64,000 bases of DNA, from the NCBI RefSeq assembly GCF_006716235.1, contig NZ_VFOR01000002.1, forward strand, positions 868,001 to 932,000, written 5' to 3'. The number at the start of each line of letters is the position of its first letter. The first letter of the stretch is position 1. The translations under genes and the position numbers were made by a program. The notes under the pieces were generated by a model. The model did no database searches. It was not told where the DNA came from and worked only from the letters and a program-made list of their open reading frames with translations. Positions 1,843 to 9,817 of the stretch are shown one piece after another. Origin of the DNA: Propioniferax innocua (lineage in GTDB: Bacteria > Actinomycetota > Actinomycetes > Propionibacteriales > Propionibacteriaceae).

Positions 1843-2832
1843 TCAGTTCTGGCCGTACTGACCCTGATCACCATAGGGCTGCTGGCCATACTGACCCTGA
1901 TCACCATAGGGCTGCTGGCCGTACTGACCCTGATCACCATAGGGCTGCTGGCCATACTGACCCTGATCACCGTAAGGCTGCTGCCCATACTGCTGAGATT
2001 CAGGCGCCTGCTGCGGCGCAGCCGGAGGCTGGGACGCGGAAGGCTGACCCTGCGGAACCCCGTACTGGCCCTGCTGCGGCTGCTGAGCCTGCTGGGGCTG
2101 TGCATACTGCTGCTGCGGCTGCTGGTTCTGCGTCGGCTGTCCGTACTGCTGCGGTTGCTGCTGTCCATACTGGGGCTGCGACGGTTGGGCGTCGAGCTGC
2201 GGCTGGGGCGCCTGCGAAGGGGCCTGACGCTCGTCACCGCGATACGCGATGGAGCCGAAGTTCACATCCGGCGACTGGCGTGCTGCCGGATCCTGGATCT
2301 CGAAGTAGGTGGCCTTCTCGAACTTGCCCATCCCGGCGATGACATTGCTGGGCAGCGACTCCACCTTGGTGTTGTACTCACGCACATTGGCGTTGTAGTA
2401 GCGGCGTCCAGCAGCAATGCGGTCCTCGGTCTCGGACAGCTCCTTCTGCAGATGCAGGAAATTGGTGTTCGACTTCAGGTCCGGGTAGGCCTCCACGGTC
2501 ACCAGCAGGTTCCGCACAGCACCCGAGAGCGCTTCCTCGGTCTCGGCGCGGGCCGCCGACGGCATCGCACCCTCACCCTGGGCCACCTGCGCGGCCTGGT
2601 TCCGCAACCGCGTCACGTCCTCCAACGTGTTGCGCTCATGCGCAGCGAAACCACGCACGGTCTCCACGAGGTTGGGAATGAGCTCGTAACGTCGGTTCAA
2701 TTCGACGTCTATCTGACGCCACGACTCCTGGATCTTGTTGCGCATCTTGACGAATCCGTTGTAGGTCGCCAAGCCGTACCCGACCACGCCGAGCACCACG
2801 AGCAGCAAAACGATGATGATCGCCCAGACCAT
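1843..2832 (-). CDS. lemA: LemA family membrane protein with Gln/Tyr-rich repeat tail
   Basis: Membrane-anchored LemA protein of unknown biochemical role. An N-terminal transmembrane helix (residues 2-25) is followed by the four-helix LemA domain to about residue 190, including the conserved NKIQESWRQIDVELNRRYELIPNLVE stretch, LLVTVEAYPDLKSNTNF and YNANVREYNTKVESLPSN. The remaining about 140 residues are a Gln/Pro/Tyr-rich tail ending in four copies of an 11-residue GQYGQQPYGDQ unit, so this protein is much longer than the usual 185-200 residues. AAGGAG precedes the ATG by 9 nt. It is monocistronic, with pyrE behind it and array 1 downstream. The tail is probably disordered. Confidence 0.93.
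   Translation of the reverse strand: MVWAIIIVLLLVVLGVVGYGLATYNGFVKMRNKIQESWRQIDVELNRRYELIPNLVETVRGFAAHERNTLEDVTRLRNQAAQVAQGEGAMPSAARAETEEALSGAVRNLLVTVEAYPDLKSNTNFLHLQKELSETEDRIAAGRRYYNANVREYNTKVESLPSNVIAGMGKFEKATYFEIQDPAARQSPDVNFGSIAYRGDERQAPSQAPQPQLDAQPSQPQYGQQQPQQYGQPTQNQQPQQQYAQPQQAQQPQQGQYGVPQGQPSASQPPAAPQQAPESQQYGQQPYGDQGQYGQQPYGDQGQYGQQPYGDQGQYGQQPYGDQGQYGQN
1850..1981 (-). repeat. 33-bp tandem repeats encoding the LemA tail
   Basis: Four consecutive 33-bp units encode GQYGQQPYGDQ-type repeats. Units differ by only a few bases and their length is a multiple of three, so copy-number change would keep the reading frame. Confidence 0.85.
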
Positions 2833-2896: not shown

Positions 2897-3445
2897 TCAG
2901 TACTCGTCAAGCCCGAGTTCATCGGCCGAGACCGCATAACGATATTCCAGCCCCTGCGCCTCGATGGCCGCAGCAGCTTCGGTGCGGCGATCCACCACCA
3001 CGGCGACCGCCACCACCACAGCGCCAGCGGCACGCACCGCCTCCACCGCGGTCAACGCCGAGCCACCGGTGGTGGATGTGTCCTCCACCACCAGCACCCG
3101 ACGCCCCGCGATGTCAGTGCCCTCGATCCGCCGCTGCATACCGTGCGCCTTCTCGACCTTGCGCACCACGAACGCGTCCAACCGCTTCCCCTCGGATGCA
3201 GCACTGTGCAACATGGCCGTGGCCACCGGGTCGGCCCCGAGCGTCAGGCCCCCCACGGCGTCGAAGTCCAGATCGGCGGTGAGGTCACGCATGACGCTGC
3301 CCACCAACGGCGAGGCGGCACCATCGAGCGTCACCCGACGCATGTCGATGTAGTAATCGGCCTCACGGCCAGAGCTCAGCGTGACGCGTCCATGCACCAC
3401 CGCCAACTGCTTGATGTGTTCGATGAGGGCATCGCGATCGGCCAT
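2897..3445 (-). CDS. pyrE: Orotate phosphoribosyltransferase
   Basis: Converts orotate and PRPP to orotidine 5'-monophosphate, the fifth step of UMP synthesis, in the cytoplasm. The PRPP-binding signature VLVVEDTSTTGGSAL is at residues about 117-131, and the orotate-contacting segments LSSGREADYYIDMRR and the flexible VRKVEKAHG loop are present. At 182 residues it has normal length. The frame stays open for 58 codons upstream, but the ATG beginning MADRDALIEH is preceded by TAGGAT at 7 nt, which fits a leaderless start. No other pyrimidine gene is adjacent. Confidence 0.93.
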   Translation of the reverse strand: MADRDALIEHIKQLAVVHGRVTLSSGREADYYIDMRRVTLDGAASPLVGSVMRDLTADLDFDAVGGLTLGADPVATAMLHSAASEGKRLDAFVVRKVEKAHGMQRRIEGTDIAGRRVLVVEDTSTTGGSALTAVEAVRAAGAVVVAVAVVVDRRTEAAAAIEAQGLEYRYAVSADELGLDEY

Positions 3446-3452
3446 GACCCGC

Positions 3453-3458
3453 ATCCTA
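3453..3458 (-). promoter_or_regulatory. -10 element of pyrE, leaderless type
   Basis: TAGGAT (minus strand) lies 7 nt before the ATG of pyrE and supports the short form of the protein. Confidence 0.6.
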
Positions 3459-3642
3459 ACCGGCCTTTCACAGGCGCCCACGGCGGCGCCGGAGAACCAC
3501 CCCACGCACCGGCGCGCCCCGAGCCCACACTGAGGGTCGACTGGGGGACCTACCCAATGGCATCGCCCCCGTCCCCGCCCATACAGTGGCCGCGGCACGG
3601 CCACCCGTGTCGCATCCAACGAGCAATATTGAAGGGTCTCCG

Positions 3643-6600
3643 GTGAAGAAACTCGCTCAACTGAGCATCGCCAACCGTGCCGTCATCACGCTGCTGTGCA
3701 TCGTCGTCCTGGGCGCGGGTGTCTTCGCCGCCTCCAAGCTCAAGCAGGAGCTGTTCCCCGACCTCACGATGCCCGCCGGGTCGATCAGCGTCAGCTACCC
3801 CGGCGCGACGGGCGAAGCGGTCGAACGGGAGGTCGCCGAACCCATCGAGACCGCCCTGCGCGGCATCCCCGGCGTCACCAATGTCAGCTCCACCAGCCAG
3901 ACCAACAGCGCCCAGATCGAGGTGGAATGGGAGTACGGCCGCAACGCCACCGACATGGAATCCCAGATCCGCCAAGCCGTCGCGCGCACCGAAGCCCAAC
4001 TCCCCGACAACGCCGAGAGCGACGTCATCATGGGCGGCATGGACGACTTCCCCGTCGTCGTCATGTCCGTCGCCTCCGACCACGACCCCAGCGTCCTGGC
4101 CCAACGCCTCGACGAACAGGTCGTTCCCGACCTGCAGGACCTCCCCGGCGTCCGCACCGTGCAGGTCAGCGGGCAACGCGCCAAACAGATCGAGATCACC
4201 GCCCGCCCCGACGACGTCGACCGACACGAGGTGGATCTGGCGCAGGTCCCAGAACTGTTCGAGGGCAAACTCAACCCCGTCCCCGCAGGAAACCTCTCCA
4301 CCAAGCAGGGACGCCTCAACGTGCAGGTCGGCGACACCCTCAAGACCCCCGAGGACATCGCTGCCCTCCAGCTCCAGTCCCCCGACGGCCCCGTGCGGCT
4401 CGGCGACATCGCCGACGTCGAACTCGTCGACGCCCCCGCGACCTCCTACTCCCGCGTCAACGGCCGTGAAGCCCTCTCGCTCATGGTCATCAAGACCCCC
4501 GACGCCAACACCGTGCAGGTGGCCAACTCCGTCACCGACGCCCTCCCGGCCCTGGCCAACGACATCGGCGGAAACACCGTCTTCACCGACGTGTTCAACC
4601 AGGCCCCCTACATCGAGGACTCCATCGACAACCTCGCCACCGACGGCATCCTCGGCCTCATCATGGCCATCACCATCATTCTGGTGTTCCTGTGGTCGGG
4701 ACGCTCGACGATCATCACCGGCGTCTCCATCCCGCTGTCGCTGCTCATCGCGGTGGTCGCGCTGTTCGTGGGTGACCACACCCTCAACCTGTTGACGCTC
4801 AGCGCCCTGACCATCTCGGTGGGACGCGTCGTCGACGACTCGATCGTGGTGATCGAGAACATCAACCGACACCGTGGGCTCACACCGCTGAAGGACTTCG
4901 GCCCCGACGTCATCACCCGCGCCGTCGGCGAGGTCGGCACCGCGGTGGCGTCTTCCACCCTCATCACCGTCGCGGTGTTCCTTCCCATCGGCTTCGTGGG
5001 CGGCGAAACCGGAGAACTCTTCCGCCCCTTCGCCCTGACCAGCATGGTGGCCCTGCTCGGCTCACTCCTGGTGGCTCTGGTGGTGGTGCCGGTGCTCTCC
5101 TACTGGTTCCTGCGCCCCACCAACAAGGAACTCGCCGCCGAGACCGCCCGTGCGGCCGAGGCACGACGCTCCGCCGACACCGATGACCTCGCCAGCCAGC
5201 AGGCCGAGAAGCCGAGCCGCATGCAGCGTGCCTACCTGCCCGCGCTGAAGTGGTCGCTGCGGCACCGCTGGGTCACACTCGCCCTGGCGACGTTCATCTT
5301 CCTCGGCACCATGATGTCCGCGGGACTGCTGCGCACCGAGTTCATGGGCGACACCGGCGAGAACACCATCATGGTCAACCAGACCCTCCCCGAGGGGACC
5401 ACTCTGGAGGAGACCGACTCCCACGCCCGCGACATGGAGGCGATACTCGCCGAGGAGCCGGAGATCAAGACCTACCAGTCGAGCATCGGCGGCCAGATGG
5501 ACCAATACGGCGGAGGCGGCGAGAACAACGTCACCTACTCGCTGACACTGCAGGACGACGCCGACGCCGAGGAAATCAGCCAACGGTTGCGTCAGAAGTT
5601 CGAGGATGCCCCCGATTCCGGCGAGTTCATGATCAGCGCCGGCGGCTCCGCCACCGGCTCGCAGGACATCAGCGTCGGGATCAACGGCACCGAGATCGAG
5701 GACCTCGAGACCGCCACCAACCGCATCACCGCCAAACTGGAGAAGATCGAGGGACTCGACGACATCCGTTCCGACTTCTCCGAGGCCGAGACCCTGCTGC
5801 AGGTGGAGGTCGATGAGGACGCCGCCGCGAAACGGGGCATGTCCCAGGCCAGCATCGGCACCGCCGTCAACGAAGCCATCCAGGGCACCACCTTGGGCGA
5901 CATCACCACCGACCACGGCAGCACCGAGGTGCTGCTGCGTTCCCGCGAACCGATCACCAAGGCCGAGGAACTCGAGAACCTCGAGCTGCCCGTGACCGAG
6001 AAGCAGACCGCCGACGCACGCCAGGAGATCACCGACGAGGTGGAACGGCGTCAGGACGAGATGTCCAACGAGGAGGAGGCCAAGGCCGAAGAGGAGATGC
6101 GCGAGCAGGAGCAGGAACTGCAGGACTCCCGCGCCGAACTCCAGCAACAACTCAACGAGGCCCGCTCCCAGCTCTCCGAGGCGCGTCGGGCCGAACAACA
6201 GGGCCCCCAGCTCCCCGCCGGCGGCATGGGGCCCGGCATGGAGGGCATGGGCGGCTCCCCCGTCGGGCAGATGGAGGAATCGGTCACCCAGCTCGAAGAA
6301 CAGCTTGAGGAGCTCGACGACCAGATGGCCGCCCTGGACGAACAACGTTCCGAGGCCGCCGAGCAGAGGGCGCGAAGCGAGGAGATCGAGGAGCTCTCCG
6401 AACAGGCCGAGGAGGTCAAGGGCGATCCGGCGAAGGTCTCCGATGTGGGCAAGGTGGTCGAAGCCAAGACGCCCGCGTCCATCACCCGCATGAACGGTTC
6501 ACGCACCATCACCATCACCGCCACCCCGACCGGCGACGACCTCGGCGCCCTCAACGCCGAAGTCCAGCAGGCGCTCGCCAGCACCGACCTGCCGCCCGGC

Positions 6601-7296
6601 GTCAAGACCGGAACCGGCGGCGTCACCGCCGAACAGGACGAGGCGTTCGAAGAACTGTGGCTCGCCATGGGTGTGGCGATCGCGATGGTCTACATCATCA
6701 TGGTCGCAACGTTCCGCTCGGTGCTGCAGCCCCTGCTGCTGCTGATCTCGGTGCCGTTCGCGGGCACGGGCGTCATCGGCATCCTGCTGGTGACCGACAC
6801 CGCTCTCGGCCTTCCGGCGATGATCGGCCTGCTCATGTTGATCGGCATCGTGGTCACCAACGCCATCGTGCTGATCGACCTGATCAACACCTACCGGAGT
6901 CGAGGCAGCAGCCTCGATGACGCGGTGATCCACGGCGCCCGCCTGCGTCTGCGTCCGATCATCATGACCGCCCTGGCCACCATCATGGGTCTGGCGCCCA
7001 TGGCCTCGGGATTGACCGGGCAGAGCATCTTCATCTCGCAGTCACTGGCGCTCGTGGTGATCGGCGGGCTGATCTCCTCCACCCTGTTGACGCTCATCCT
7101 CGTGCCGGTGCTGTATCACCTGCTCGAATCGCGCATCCTCAAGCGGGCCGAGCGCAAGCAGGCCAAACGCGACGAGGCACTGCGCGAGGACGACGATCCC
7201 GGCAGCCTGGCCGATGTCGGTCTGGCCGATGAGGCCGAACCGGAAGGGACCACGAGCACCGGTCGTCGCCGCAGGTGGTTCGCACGACGCAAGTGA
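3643..7296 (+). CDS. RND (AcrB/HAE1-like) efflux permease with a coiled-coil insertion
   Basis: Proton-driven export permease of the RND superfamily. It has the classic duplicated layout: TM1 at residues 7-28, a first porter domain, TM2-6 with the conserved ALTISVGRVVDDSIVVIENI (TM4 proton-relay Asp pair), TM7 near 560, a second porter domain, and TM8-12 to about 1160. The GTG start (VKKLAQLSIANRAVI) follows GAAGGG. At 1217 residues it is some 170 longer than AcrB. Most of the excess is a Glu/Gln-rich coiled-coil hairpin at about 790-930, interrupted by a Gly/Met/Pro turn (GGMGPGMEGMGG). No membrane-fusion protein or outer-membrane channel gene is adjacent, as expected in a monoderm. The substrate is unknown. 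Confidence 0.92.
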   Translation: MKKLAQLSIANRAVITLLCIVVLGAGVFAASKLKQELFPDLTMPAGSISVSYPGATGEAVEREVAEPIETALRGIPGVTNVSSTSQTNSAQIEVEWEYGRNATDMESQIRQAVARTEAQLPDNAESDVIMGGMDDFPVVVMSVASDHDPSVLAQRLDEQVVPDLQDLPGVRTVQVSGQRAKQIEITARPDDVDRHEVDLAQVPELFEGKLNPVPAGNLSTKQGRLNVQVGDTLKTPEDIAALQLQSPDGPVRLGDIADVELVDAPATSYSRVNGREALSLMVIKTPDANTVQVANSVTDALPALANDIGGNTVFTDVFNQAPYIEDSIDNLATDGILGLIMAITIILVFLWSGRSTIITGVSIPLSLLIAVVALFVGDHTLNLLTLSALTISVGRVVDDSIVVIENINRHRGLTPLKDFGPDVITRAVGEVGTAVASSTLITVAVFLPIGFVGGETGELFRPFALTSMVALLGSLLVALVVVPVLSYWFLRPTNKELAAETARAAEARRSADTDDLASQQAEKPSRMQRAYLPALKWSLRHRWVTLALATFIFLGTMMSAGLLRTEFMGDTGENTIMVNQTLPEGTTLEETDSHARDMEAILAEEPEIKTYQSSIGGQMDQYGGGGENNVTYSLTLQDDADAEEISQRLRQKFEDAPDSGEFMISAGGSATGSQDISVGINGTEIEDLETATNRITAKLEKIEGLDDIRSDFSEAETLLQVEVDEDAAAKRGMSQASIGTAVNEAIQGTTLGDITTDHGSTEVLLRSREPITKAEELENLELPVTEKQTADARQEITDEVERRQDEMSNEEEAKAEEEMREQEQELQDSRAELQQQLNEARSQLSEARRAEQQGPQLPAGGMGPGMEGMGGSPVGQMEESVTQLEEQLEELDDQMAALDEQRSEAAEQRARSEEIEELSEQAEEVKGDPAKVSDVGKVVEAKTPASITRMNGSRTITITATPTGDDLGALNAEVQQALASTDLPPGVKTGTGGVTAEQDEAFEELWLAMGVAIAMVYIIMVATFRSVLQPLLLLISVPFAGTGVIGILLVTDTALGLPAMIGLLMLIGIVVTNAIVLIDLINTYRSRGSSLDDAVIHGARLRLRPIIMTALATIMGLAPMASGLTGQSIFISQSLALVVIGGLISSTLLTLILVPVLYHLLESRILKRAERKQAKRDEALREDDDPGSLADVGLADEAEPEGTTSTGRRRRWFARRK

Positions 7297-7344: not shown

Positions 7345-7430
7345 TGCGGTTTCCTACCACCGGATTCCATGGATCGGCGGCAGACGCCGTGGCCACGCCG
7401 TCGGGCCGAATCGCGTGGTAGGAAACCGCA
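7345..7430. repeat. 86-bp element with 16-bp terminal inverted repeats (copy 1)
   Basis: TGCGGTTTCCTACCAC at the left end is perfectly repeated in inverse as GTGGTAGGAAACCGCA at the right end. It lies in the gap between the RND gene and the CBS-NeuB gene, the rest of which holds only the latter's promoter. A second element of exactly the same length and nearly the same ends lies near 32.8 kb. It could act as a cruciform, a terminator or a small non-autonomous mobile element. Confidence 0.8.
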
Positions 7431-7573: not shown

Positions 7574-9817
7574 ATGATCATCGATCGCGCCATCGGCCCG
7601 TTTGTGATCCTGGGTCAGGAGTCGCTCGTGGCGGCGCTGACCAAGATCACCGCCAACAAGGCACGGATCCTGTTCGTCGCCGACTCGCACGGCCACCTCA
7701 TCGGTGCGCTGTCCGACGGTGACGTGCGCCGGTGGCTCATCGCGAACCCGGAGGCCGATCTGGCCACGAGCGTCGACCACGTCGCCAACCGCAATGTGCG
7801 TTCGGCCCCCATCGACGCCTCCCCCGACCAGATCAATGCCCTGCTCGCCGGGCCGATCACCCACGTGCCGCTGCTCGATGCACAAAACCGCGTCGTGGCG
7901 GTGGCCACCCCCACCGCCGACGCCCTGCACATCGGACGCCACCGCGTCTCGGCCGAGGACCCGACGCTGATCATCGCCGAGATCGGCAACAACCATCAGG
8001 GCAGCGTCTCGTTCGCCAAGGAGCTCGTCGATCTCGCGGCGGACGCCGGCGCCGACGTGGTGAAGTTCCAGCTTCGCGACATGGACGCCCTGTACCGCCA
8101 GTCGGGCGGGGAATCGGCCGGGGAAGATCTCGGCGCGCAGTACACCTTGAACCTCTTGGCGAAGTTCTCTCTCGACGCCGAGCAGATGTTCGAGGTCTTC
8201 GATCACTGCCGGAAACGCGATGTCGACGTGCTGTGCACCCCGTGGGACACCCCCTCGGTCAGGGCGTTGCAGGAGTACGGGATCCCCGCTTTGAAGGTCG
8301 CATCGGCCGATATGACCAACCACGCGCTGTTGCGTGAGATGTTCGCCACCGGACTTCCCTTGATCGTCTCGACGGGAATGTCCACCGAGGCCGAGATCCG
8401 CCAGTCCGCCGAGCTACTGCGCTCCTCGGGGTCACCGTGGGCGATGCTGCACTGCCAGTCGACCTACCCGGCACCGTTCAAGGACATCAACCTGCGCTAC
8501 CTGAAGCGTCTGGCCGAGATCACCGGTGGCCCGGTGGGTTACTCCGGCCATGAACGCGGTTTCCATATTCCGGTGGCCGCGGTCGCCATGGGCGCGCGGA
8601 TCATCGAGAAGCATTTCACCACCGACCGCACCCTCGAGGGCAACGACCACAAGGTCTCCCTCCTCCCCGAGGAGTTCGGGCAGATGGTGGAACGCATCCG
8701 CGAACTCGAGGAGGCCCTGGGCGACGGGGAGGCCCGCGTCGTCTCCACCGGCGAATCGATGAACCGGGTGAACCTCGCGAAGTCGCTCGTGGCAGCACGC
8801 CACATCGAGGTCGGCGAGACGATCGGGCACGCCGACGTGGACATCAAGTCCCCCGGACGCGGCCTGCAGCCGAACCGGCTCGAGGAGCTGGTGGGACGCC
8901 TGGCCAAACGGACGGTCGAGGCCGGGGACTTCTTCTACCCCGGCGACCTCCATGACGCCCCCGTCGGCGGCCGTCAGTACACGTTCCGACGCCCCTGGGG
9001 CCTGCCGGTGCGGTACCACGATCACGCCAGGCTGATCGAGGACTGCACCCCGGACTTCCTCGAGTTCCACATGTCCTACAAGGACGTGGACATGGACATC
9101 CACGACGTGTTCGACAAGCGTCTGGACATGTTCTTCACCGTCCACCTGCCCGATCTCTACGACGGTGATTTCATCGTGAACCTCGCCTCCCCCGAGGACG
9201 CGGTGTGGGAACGGTCGATCGCCGAGTTGCAGCGGGTCATCGACATCACCCGTGACATGACGCAGTACTTCACCTGTGACGAACCGCCGGTCGTCATCGC
9301 GACCATGGGCGGGTTCACGGCCGACCGTTTCGTCGACCCCGGCGAACGACCGGCCATGTATGCGCGGATCGCCCAGGGCATCGAACGCGTCGACACCACC
9401 GACGTGCGCCTCACCTGCCAGACGCTGCCGCCCTTCCCGTGGCTCATGGGCGGCCAGCAGCACCACAACCTGTTCATGCAGCTCGAGGACACCGTCGAGT
9501 TCTGTGAGCAGTACGGTCAGCGTCTGACGCTGGACATCTCACATTCGAAGCTGGCGGCCAACTTCCACAAACGTCCATTCAGCGAGTACGTGGACGGGCT
9601 GGCCCCACACACCGAACATCTGCACATCGTGGACGCCGAGGGCGTCGACGGTGAGGGCCCGCAGATCGGTGAGGGCGAAGTGGATTGGCCGATGCTTGCC
9701 AAGCAACTCGATGAACTCGCGCCGGGTGTGCCCTTCATTCCCGAGATCTGGATGGGGCACGTCAACAATGGCGAAGGCTTCTGGACGGCCTTGGAACGTC
9801 TTGAGGAGTGGTTCTGA
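7574..9817 (+). CDS. CBS-NeuB-SAF-sugar isomerase/epimerase fusion (sialic-acid synthase-like)
   Basis: A 747-residue multidomain enzyme. Residues 1-125 resemble a CBS-domain pair (LSDGDVRRWLI; ITHVPLLDAQNRVVAV). Residues about 130-370 are a NeuB barrel, which condenses phosphoenolpyruvate with an amino-sugar in nonulosonic acid synthesis: EIGNNHQG at 136-143, then DVVKFQ, VSTGMS, LHCQSTYP, GYSGHE and IEKHFT. A SAF/antifreeze-like domain follows to about 445 (LVAARHIEVGETI). Residues about 465-747 are a second TIM barrel of the sugar-phosphate isomerase/epimerase type (LDISHSKLAANF, HLHIVDAEG). It has its own promoter and stands alone, with no CMP transferase, epimerase or glycosyltransferase gene around it. 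Family membership is secure; the exact substrate is not. Confidence 0.88.
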   Translation: MIIDRAIGPFVILGQESLVAALTKITANKARILFVADSHGHLIGALSDGDVRRWLIANPEADLATSVDHVANRNVRSAPIDASPDQINALLAGPITHVPLLDAQNRVVAVATPTADALHIGRHRVSAEDPTLIIAEIGNNHQGSVSFAKELVDLAADAGADVVKFQLRDMDALYRQSGGESAGEDLGAQYTLNLLAKFSLDAEQMFEVFDHCRKRDVDVLCTPWDTPSVRALQEYGIPALKVASADMTNHALLREMFATGLPLIVSTGMSTEAEIRQSAELLRSSGSPWAMLHCQSTYPAPFKDINLRYLKRLAEITGGPVGYSGHERGFHIPVAAVAMGARIIEKHFTTDRTLEGNDHKVSLLPEEFGQMVERIRELEEALGDGEARVVSTGESMNRVNLAKSLVAARHIEVGETIGHADVDIKSPGRGLQPNRLEELVGRLAKRTVEAGDFFYPGDLHDAPVGGRQYTFRRPWGLPVRYHDHARLIEDCTPDFLEFHMSYKDVDMDIHDVFDKRLDMFFTVHLPDLYDGDFIVNLASPEDAVWERSIAELQRVIDITRDMTQYFTCDEPPVVIATMGGFTADRFVDPGERPAMYARIAQGIERVDTTDVRLTCQTLPPFPWLMGGQQHHNLFMQLEDTVEFCEQYGQRLTLDISHSKLAANFHKRPFSEYVDGLAPHTEHLHIVDAEGVDGEGPQIGEGEVDWPMLAKQLDELAPGVPFIPEIWMGHVNNGEGFWTALERLEEWF

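What the first reader, a model, noticed from the sequence alone, without database searches (positions are those of the whole stretch)
7574..9817. Orphan CBS-NeuB-SAF-sugar isomerase four-part fusion
One 747-residue protein joins a CBS pair, a NeuB synthase, a SAF domain and a second TIM barrel of the isomerase/epimerase type. Nonulosonic acid genes normally sit in a cluster with a CMP transferase, epimerase and glycosyltransferases; none is near. The CBS pair suggests control by an adenine nucleotide. The enzyme may make an unusual PEP-derived sugar acid, with the added barrel preparing the substrate, in effect a one-gene pathway.
Basis: partly seen in the sequence, partly recalled or inferred. 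Interest (0 to 1): 0.6.

Follow-up and report, generated by a model that had tools for sequence, protein, structure and literature searches.

The report
Displaced four-part sugar-acid synthase gene
The gene really does join four domains into one sugar-acid-making enzyme, but the same fusion is common in actinobacteria, where it usually sits in a surface-polysaccharide gene cluster beside the enzyme that activates its product; here the gene has been separated from that cluster, and what its extra barrel does is still untested.

Summary
Confirmed: an intact 747-residue ORF (7574-9817 +) with CBS, NeuB, SAF and an AP_endonuc_2 barrel. The fusion is normally no orphan: a CTP_transf_3 cytidylyltransferase lies within 400 bp, same strand, in 70 of 87 loci, in glycosyltransferase/Wzy/Wzz surface-glycan loci. 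In viral contigs a CBS-less form adjoins a GT29 sialyltransferase. In the window, fusion plus an RND pump separate a sortase and a phosphoribosyltransferase gene that are neighbours in nine relatives. NeuB PEP/metal residues are kept, but Arg314, thought to place the ManNAc N-acetyl, is Ser in 54 of 54: probably not a ManNAc enzyme. The barrel has a ketose-3-epimerase fold; three of four metal ligands are invariant, the first Glu is Gln in 53 of 54. The own genome keeps one unlinked cytidylyltransferase and a DUF6716 glycosyltransferase, types that in sister genomes go with plain NeuB. 'One-gene pathway' is not supported; an unusual ulosonate is plausible.

The parts
7574..9817 (+). CBS-NeuB-SAF-barrel fusion, 747 aa, ATG start
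   Evidence: full-length relatives
7574..7918 (+). N-terminal CBS pair (residues 1-115); G44, S/T47, D48, D50, R52, R53 kept in all 51 aligned members that have the domain
   Evidence: Pfam CBS 10-55, just under cut-off; weak KpsF/GutQ profile match; conservation
7919..8743 (+). NeuB catalytic TIM barrel (about residues 116-390)
   Evidence: Pfam 5.2e-80; model against NeuB 2wqp Z 38.6 over residues 115-460
8756..8953 (+). SAF (antifreeze-like) domain (about residues 395-460); S426 stands where NeuB has Arg314
   Evidence: Pfam 2.1e-9; alignments; Ser in 54 of 54
8957..9814 (+). C-terminal sugar epimerase/isomerase-type TIM barrel (about residues 462-747); putative metal site Q616, D654, H684, E724
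   Evidence: Pfam AP_endonuc_2 3.4e-18; model pLDDT 92; 3wqo Z 24.8; conservation
3586..7296 (+). RND (ACR_tran) transporter; with the fusion forms the plus-strand insert
   Evidence: synteny
7345..7430 (.). 23-nt inverted repeat between RND gene and fusion; its 13-nt core occurs exactly nowhere else in the genome
9833..10534 (-). sortase, right-hand border of the insert
2897..3619 (-). phosphoribosyltransferase, left-hand border of the insert (in most relatives homology starts at residue 55-62, so the true start may be near 3445)
1843..2832 (-). LemA-family protein, next gene of the conserved minus-strand block

Best explanation
The protein is a PEP-dependent 2-keto-3-deoxy-sugar-acid (ulosonate) synthase of the NeuB fold (shown by family, fold and residues; not by assay). 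Its NeuB-SAF core condenses PEP with an aldose that does not carry the 2-N-acetyl group of ManNAc, giving a Kdn-like nonulosonate or a related acid (inferred). The C-terminal barrel, a relative of ketose 3-epimerases/isomerases, supplies that aldose from a ketose (inferred). The CBS pair senses a nucleotide, most simply the CMP-sugar end product as feedback (inferred). The acid is then activated to a CMP-sugar by a cytidylyltransferase (the neighbour in most relatives, an unlinked single-copy gene here) and put into a surface glycan. In this genome the gene is a displaced member of that system: with an RND gene it was inserted between sortase and phosphoribosyltransferase genes, and it is the only NeuB match the genome has, so it probably feeds the genome's NeuA-like/DUF6716 pair, which in sister genomes goes with a plain NeuB (inferred).
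For: Residues aligned with NeuB E25, K53, Q55, K129, S132, S154, Y186, S213, H215, E234, H236, D247 are identical in 54 of 54, T110 in 53. R314->S in 54 of 54; 4ipi/4ipj (R314A/K) confirm the numbering; Arg314 is described as placing the ManNAc N-acetyl (PMC6795526, passages). Cytidylyltransferase within 400 bp in 70 of 87 loci, within 1.1 kb in 5 more; cl1 in 66 of 70 and a Wzy-like protein in 58 of 70 full-flank loci. No NeuC-type epimerase or aminotransferase among representatives of 25 of the 26 gene groups that recur in 10 or more loci. GT29 next to the CBS-less form (L110, L112, L113). Barrel fold: 3wqo Z 24.8, UlaE Z 21.8; D654, H684, E724 invariant. Insertion: sortase-phosphoribosyltransferase neighbours in 9 relatives, about 6.2 kb apart here. 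One NeuB and one CTP_transf_3 match in the genome; DUF6716 in 8 of 10 plain-NeuB genomes, 0 of 15 other fusion genomes, present here.
Against: No product or substrate was measured. The first metal ligand of the barrel, Glu in MJ1311 and in L026, is Gln in 53 of 54, which may abolish classical 3-epimerase chemistry. Phe288 and Phe112 of NeuB also differ (N400 in 47 of 54, W224 in 53 of 54) and Asn74 was not mapped, so more than the N-acetyl contact changed. A NAD-dependent epimerase group (20 loci), a hexapeptide-repeat group (12 loci) and nucleotide-sugar dehydratases occur in some loci and could belong to the pathway. CBS ligand unknown; the best PDB match of the CBS part is MJ0100, not a Kdo-pathway protein. 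The five nearest loci without one also lack an adjacent cytidylyltransferase, so the window is not alone in that. pTM of the full model is 0.63, so the domain arrangement is unsure.
Confidence: 0.5

Rival explanations
1. The C-terminal barrel is a non-catalytic scaffold or sensor: it binds sugar but, having lost the first metal-ligand Glu, no longer isomerises anything; the aldose comes from central metabolism.
For: Q616 for Glu in 53 of 54 aligned members; both Glu ligands are catalytic in D-tagatose 3-epimerases (recalled, no call).
Against: D654, H657, H682, H684, E694, E724, W726, H729, H499, H524 are identical in 54 of 54 across bacteria and viral contigs, unusual for a dead domain. (That every member keeps the barrel is no evidence: members were found through it.)
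Confidence: 0.27
2. It is an ordinary N-acetylneuraminate synthase with extra domains.
For: NeuB_NnaB profile is the best NCBIfam match, 310 bits.
Against: Below the curated cut-off of 399.65; Arg314 absent in 54 of 54; no NeuC-type epimerase among representatives of 25 of 26 recurrent neighbour groups, one representative each.
Confidence: 0.1
3. The window copy is a relic of a lost cluster with no current role.
For: No match to cluster proteins in the window; cl1 of Rothia finds nothing in the own genome (a search without a positive control); the own cytidylyltransferase is only about 30-37% alike to the cluster-type ones compared.
Against: Full-length frame, tested active-site residues intact, GC3 0.87 like DnaK 0.87, and a NeuA-like gene and a DUF6716 transferase remain without any other NeuB match.
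Confidence: 0.18
4. The barrel acts after condensation, epimerising or isomerising the keto-acid product rather than preparing the aldose.
For: The fold includes enzymes that act on keto sugars; the product is a 2-keto acid.
Against: C3 of a NeuB product is a methylene, so 3-epimerisation has no meaning there (chemistry, inference).
Confidence: 0.13

Closest known systems
NeuB/SiaC sialic acid synthase of Neisseria meningitidis (1xuu, 2wqp, 4ipi, 4ipj)
   Same: Fold of barrel plus SAF (2wqp Z 38.6, 339 aligned, rmsd 2.5); PEP and metal residues
   Different: Arg314->Ser, Glu134->Asp, Asn184->Ser in all 54; extra CBS and epimerase-type domains
Pseudaminic acid synthase PseI (8h2c; TIGR03586)
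   Same: NeuB-SAF core (Z 33.9)
   Different: 231 bits against a cut-off of 340
D-tagatose 3-epimerase-like MJ1311 (3wqo), UlaE, D-allulose 3-epimerases
   Same: Fold of the C-terminal barrel (Z 24.8, 241 aligned, 19% identity); profile match to MJ1311 1.1e-10
   Different: Gln in place of the first metal-ligand Glu; fused to a synthase
Kdn teichulosonic acid locus of Streptomyces coelicolor SCO4873-SCO4882
   Same: Actinobacterial wall polymer with a nonulosonate without N-acyl group (PMC11481543 passages; PMC13011467 passages); a table in PMC8269224 (passage) names the counterpart of SCO4880 a sialic acid synthase
   Different: Sequence of SCO4880 not compared here; relation is only by analogy
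CBS pairs of arabinose-5-phosphate isomerases KdsD/KpsF/GutQ (3k2v, 4o9k)
   Same: Weak sequence match of the CBS part; 4o9k is recalled, not checked, as a CMP-Kdo complex
   Different: No SIS isomerase domain found; far below the KpsF cut-off (19.6 against 203.7)

Membership tests
NeuB-type PEP-dependent sugar acid synthase | NeuB domain above Pfam cut-off with PEP/metal residues | tested here: met
   268.8 bits vs 22.1; 13 mapped residues conserved in 53-54 of 54
NeuB-type PEP-dependent sugar acid synthase | SAF domain after the barrel | tested here: met
   38.2 bits vs 21
N-acetylneuraminate synthase (NeuB_NnaB, TIGR03569) | Curated score and Arg314 for ManNAc | tested here: not met
   310.3 vs 399.65 bits; Ser in 54 of 54
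Pseudaminic acid synthase (TIGR03586) | Curated score | tested here: not met
   231.2 vs 340.25 bits
Ketose 3-epimerase / xylose isomerase-like barrel (PF01261) | Pfam cut-off and fold | tested here: met
   66.7 vs 31.1 bits; Z 24.8
Ketose 3-epimerase with Glu-Asp-His-Glu metal site | All four ligands (set recalled; first one placed through MJ1311) | tested here: not met
   Gln616 for Glu in 53 of 54; D654, H684, E724 in 54 of 54
CBS pair that binds a nucleotide | Two CBS repeats above cut-off | tested here: inconclusive
   one repeat at 23.8 vs 24 bits; S/T47-x-x-D50 kept in 51 of 51
CBS pair that binds a nucleotide | Bound ligand | not testable with these tools
   needs a binding assay
Nonulosonate/CMP-sugar gene cluster (window copy) | Cytidylyltransferase next to the synthase | tested here: not met
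   the genome's only match is on another contig; in relatives 70 of 87 within 400 bp
Nonulosonate/CMP-sugar gene cluster (window copy) | CMP-sugar product in the cell wall | not testable with these tools
   needs chemistry

The most novel reading that the evidence does not exclude
A widespread, unnamed class of self-regulated ulosonate synthases: a single protein takes a common ketose(-phosphate) and PEP, isomerises the first in its own barrel, condenses both to a non-N-acylated nonulosonate, and is switched off through its CBS pair by the CMP-sugar made by the neighbouring gene; many skin and mouth actinobacteria would then carry a sialic-acid-like surface sugar that has not been recognised, and some viruses would carry the same enzyme with a GT29 sialyltransferase.
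Probability: 0.3. Interest if true: 0.66.

Novelty: new variant of a known kind. Interest (0 to 1): 0.42.

Why it matters
The NeuB fold and the epimerase fold are both known, but four full-text searches of an open-licence library (judged from titles, abstract openings and passages of one paper) listed nothing on this fusion, although it sits in surface-glycan loci of many actinobacteria, among them Rothia, Micrococcus, Cutibacterium avidum, Brachybacterium and Nocardioides. If the core makes a ulosonate without the N-acetyl group, these bacteria make a sialic-acid-like wall sugar by a short route, and naming such proteins N-acetylneuraminate synthase would be wrong. The window genome adds a natural test: it has the NeuA-like/DUF6716 pair of plain-NeuB genomes but only the fusion as synthase.

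Tried and rejected
Searching viral contigs with the single protein gave no relative (3 stretches, none confirmed); with the barrel alignment it gave four. Phage records gave three partial matches covering 34-46% of the query, NeuB part only. Plasmids: 102 records with a match, one covering at least 80%. G373 (L027) matched only the last 138 residues of the barrel, with no NeuB by tblastn, and was treated as a fragment and left out of later counts. L068 and L054 are split by frame changes, and L065, L074, L107 lack the start; these five of 80 were left out of the full-length set.

A mobile element at the insert borders: no direct or inverted match of 10 bases or more between the borders, no tRNA in the window. 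Base composition does not mark the insert (GC3 0.87-0.89 against 0.79-0.87 in five neighbouring genes).

That cl1 (about 356 aa, no Pfam match) is a DUF6716 relative: only a 23-column motif match by hhalign, 17% probability; no PDB relative, best E 0.26. A link to Streptomyces: the one Streptomyces plasmid locus fetched matched only the plain NeuB query.

Phosphatase idea: the C-terminal part of the genome's NeuA-like protein looks like a HAD domain by motif (DFDG in L028 and L012; in the own genome the first Asp is not there), read by eye, not matched by Pfam at 1e-5; not used as evidence.

Rows dropped before counts: G010 (71% complete) was not handed, so the no-NeuB group there is 9 of the 10 family genomes without NeuB; alignment A3 used 48 of the 75 full-length genome-contig loci to cut redundancy; recurrent gene group cl24 was not annotated (25 of 26 were).

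Full report
OBSERVATION. The ORF at 7574-9817 (+) is intact and 747 residues long. Pfam gives NeuB 151-386 (5.2e-80), SAF 403-459 (2.1e-9), AP_endonuc_2 515-744 (3.4e-18) and one CBS repeat 10-55 at 23.8 bits, just under the cut-off of 24. NCBIfam's best match is NeuB_NnaB, 310 bits against a cut-off of 399.65.

HOW COMMON. In 75 of the 80 an uninterrupted frame of 746-757 codons covers the window protein. Being the best 80, they say nothing about other phyla. A full-length relative (48.7%) lies on a plasmid of Ensifer canadensis, one in G357 (56%); forms without the CBS part are in G376 (L026, contig-cut) and in four viral contigs, three of which are 99.97% identical. In the window's own family 16 of 197 genomes, own included, have the barrel; in the phylum sample 4 of 396, own included, one of them a fragment. 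So the fusion is widespread but patchy.

NORMAL CONTEXT. In the actinobacterial loci the fusion lies in a conserved row of genes. In Rothia nasimurium (L077) these are an ABC exporter, a GT2, a Glyco_trans_1_2 protein, a 356-residue protein without Pfam match (cl1), a CTP_transf_3 cytidylyltransferase closest to PseF but below its cut-off (138.6 against 205.7 bits), then the fusion, a GT4, a Wzy_C-like protein (29.8 bits, under the cut-off of 31.7), a GT4, a GT2 and a GT4. Other recurrent genes are a Wzz/kinase-like protein and a Bac_transf initiating transferase. By tblastn a cytidylyltransferase is on the same strand within 400 bp of the fusion in 70 of 87 loci (66 of 80 genome-contig loci, and L113, L024, L025, L026), at 0.9-1.1 kb in 5, at 5.2 kb in the 3 near-identical viral contigs, and not found in 9. 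Of these 9, four are cut by a contig end (L041, L042, L065, L107); the other five (L031, L032, L033, L034, L035; L033 and L034 lie on one contig) are among the six loci closest to the window protein, the sixth being L030, which has it at 1.1 kb. The genomes behind L031, L032, L033 and L035 nevertheless carry a cytidylyltransferase of the cluster type elsewhere. Among the 70 genome-contig loci of 20 kb or more, cl1 matches in 66, the Wzy-like protein in 58, Wzz in 58, Bac_transf in 33; GT4 (70) and ABC (50) matches are unspecific. Of the 26 gene groups found in 10 or more loci, one representative each of 25 was annotated (cl24 was not): no UDP-GlcNAc 2-epimerase (NeuC type) and no aminotransferase among them. 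A NAD-dependent epimerase group (20 loci), a hexapeptide-repeat group (12), nucleotide-sugar dehydratase groups and a nucleotidyltransferase occur in part of the loci.

VIRAL CONTIGS. Next to the CBS-less form, L110 and L112 have a GT29 sialyltransferase (3.1e-19) ending where the fusion begins, and L113 has GT29 (6.5e-20), CTP_transf_3 (6.5e-8) and fusion in a row. A GT29 partner supports a CMP-activated, sialic-acid-like product.

WHY THE WINDOW COPY IS AN ORPHAN. The window's sortase was sought in 24 genomes (own included); 20, own included, had a match. In nine of the 19 others the sortase and the phosphoribosyltransferase genes are neighbours on one strand, overlapping or at most 113 bp apart (L129, L130, L131, L132, L135, L137, L138, L139, L144), in six of these nine with LemA next; in three more sortase and LemA are neighbours without the phosphoribosyltransferase (L133, L134, L141); the other seven show neither within the fetched flanks. 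In the window the same genes are on the minus strand, but about 6.2 kb with the plus-strand RND gene and the fusion lies between sortase and phosphoribosyltransferase. No repeat at the borders was found. The tree puts the window protein with two Propionibacteriaceae MAGs (100/96) inside a six-row set with two Tessaracoccus rows (100/100). ClpB identity is 74-76% to seven Propionibacteriaceae genomes and 67% to Rothia and Nocardioides, so the window is probably from Propionibacteriaceae. The fusion is 75-81% identical to the Tessaracoccus-type set but 63-67% to Cutibacterium and Acidipropionibacterium, which with equal ClpB distances hints at transfer; loss in sister lines is not excluded.

PARTNERS IN THE OWN GENOME. 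The genome has one NeuB match and one CTP_transf_3 match, a 387-residue protein on another contig beside a DUF6716 putative glycosyltransferase. Relatives of that pair lie next to or near a plain NeuB in G022 and G017 (both proteins), G008 (DUF6716) and G007 (cytidylyltransferase); in the other plain-NeuB loci fetched the short flanks show neither. The plain NeuB of G017 has no SAF match. DUF6716 is in 8 of 10 plain-NeuB genomes of the family, 1 of 9 genomes without NeuB, 0 of 15 other fusion genomes, and in the own genome (Fisher p 4e-5 for 8/10 against 0/15; the genomes are related, so only a guide). Of the 16 fusion genomes, 12 have no other NeuB match, 3 have a separate one too (G440, G479, G530), and G537 has the fusion twice. 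So the window genome looks like a plain-NeuB genome whose NeuB has been replaced by the fusion. This is an inference.

ACTIVE SITES. Aligned to the meningococcal enzyme, residues corresponding to E25, K53, Q55, K129, S132, S154, Y186, S213, H215, E234, H236 and D247 are identical in 54 of 54 family members, T110 in 53. Twelve of the thirteen ligand contacts listed in PMC6795526 (passages) were examined, eight of them kept; Asn74 was not mapped; the roles of K53, S132, E134, S154, H236 and D247 are recalled. Three positions differ in all 54: E134->D, N184->S, R314->S; F288 aligns with Asn in 47 and F112 with Trp in 53. PMC6795526 (passages) says that Arg314 is the only SAF-domain residue that contributes directly to the active site, is thought to place the N-acetyl group of ManNAc, and that R314A is inactive. 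The best reading is a substrate without that group, such as a mannose-type aldose giving a Kdn-like acid. Kdn wall polymers are known in Streptomyces (PMC11481543, passages; PMC13011467, passages; a 'sialic acid synthase' matched to SCO4880 in PMC8269224, passage); the link to the present family is analogy only.

The barrel model (pLDDT 92) matches D-tagatose 3-epimerase-like MJ1311 (Z 24.8, 241 aligned), L-ketose epimerases, UlaE (Z 21.8) and endonuclease IV (Z 22.8); the profile match to MJ1311 is 1.1e-10. Of the four metal ligands, D654, H684 and E724 are identical in 54 of 54; the first is Gln616 in 53 and Glu in L026. MJ1311 has Glu there. The many other invariant residues (H499, H524, H657, H682, E694, W726, H729) argue for a working, perhaps altered, enzyme.

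The CBS part keeps G44, S/T47, D48, D50, R52, R53 in 51 of 51 members that have it, which fits the recalled nucleotide-binding motif. Its PDB matches are weak: MJ0100 (3.3e-4) and, among others, the CBS pairs of arabinose-5-phosphate isomerases 4o9k and 3k2v (0.0025, 0.0046). 4o9k is recalled as a CMP-Kdo complex; no call confirmed it. A CMP-sugar is therefore at least as good a guess as an adenine nucleotide.

VERDICT. Real, well-conserved architecture; new variant of a known kind; not a one-gene pathway. Four full-text searches listed no paper on the fusion, judged from listings and from passages of PMC4045943; the library holds only open-licence papers.

Noticed in passing
L110:8340-8969, L112:8340-8969, L113:7757-9000: Viral contigs carry a GT29 sialyltransferase just upstream of a CBS-less NeuB-SAF-barrel protein; L110 also has methyltransferase, GT2, DHDPS-family, sulfotransferase and PhyH genes.
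   Followed up: partly
7345-7367 / 7408-7430: 23-nt, 91% complementary inverted repeat in the gap between RND gene and fusion; its 13-nt core is found exactly nowhere else in the genome.
   Followed up: partly
L033 and L034 (contig NZ_LN623540.1): Tessaracoccus massiliensis carries the fusion and its surroundings twice on one contig in opposite orientation; duplication or assembly artefact.
   Followed up: no
L115:18840-20000 (own genome, contig C1): NeuA-like protein whose C-terminal part looks like a HAD domain by motif; the first Asp of the DxD motif is not there in the own genome but is in L028 and L012.
   Followed up: partly
L115:17729-18904 (own genome, contig C1): DUF6716 putative glycosyltransferase, a family tied to plain NeuB in this bacterial family (8 of 10 against 0 of 15 other fusion genomes); no paper found under that name.
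   Followed up: partly
L068 (Rothia aeria) and L054 (Phycicoccus sp. HDW14): The fusion frame is split in these two complete genomes, near the SAF/barrel junction and within the NeuB domain.
   Followed up: no
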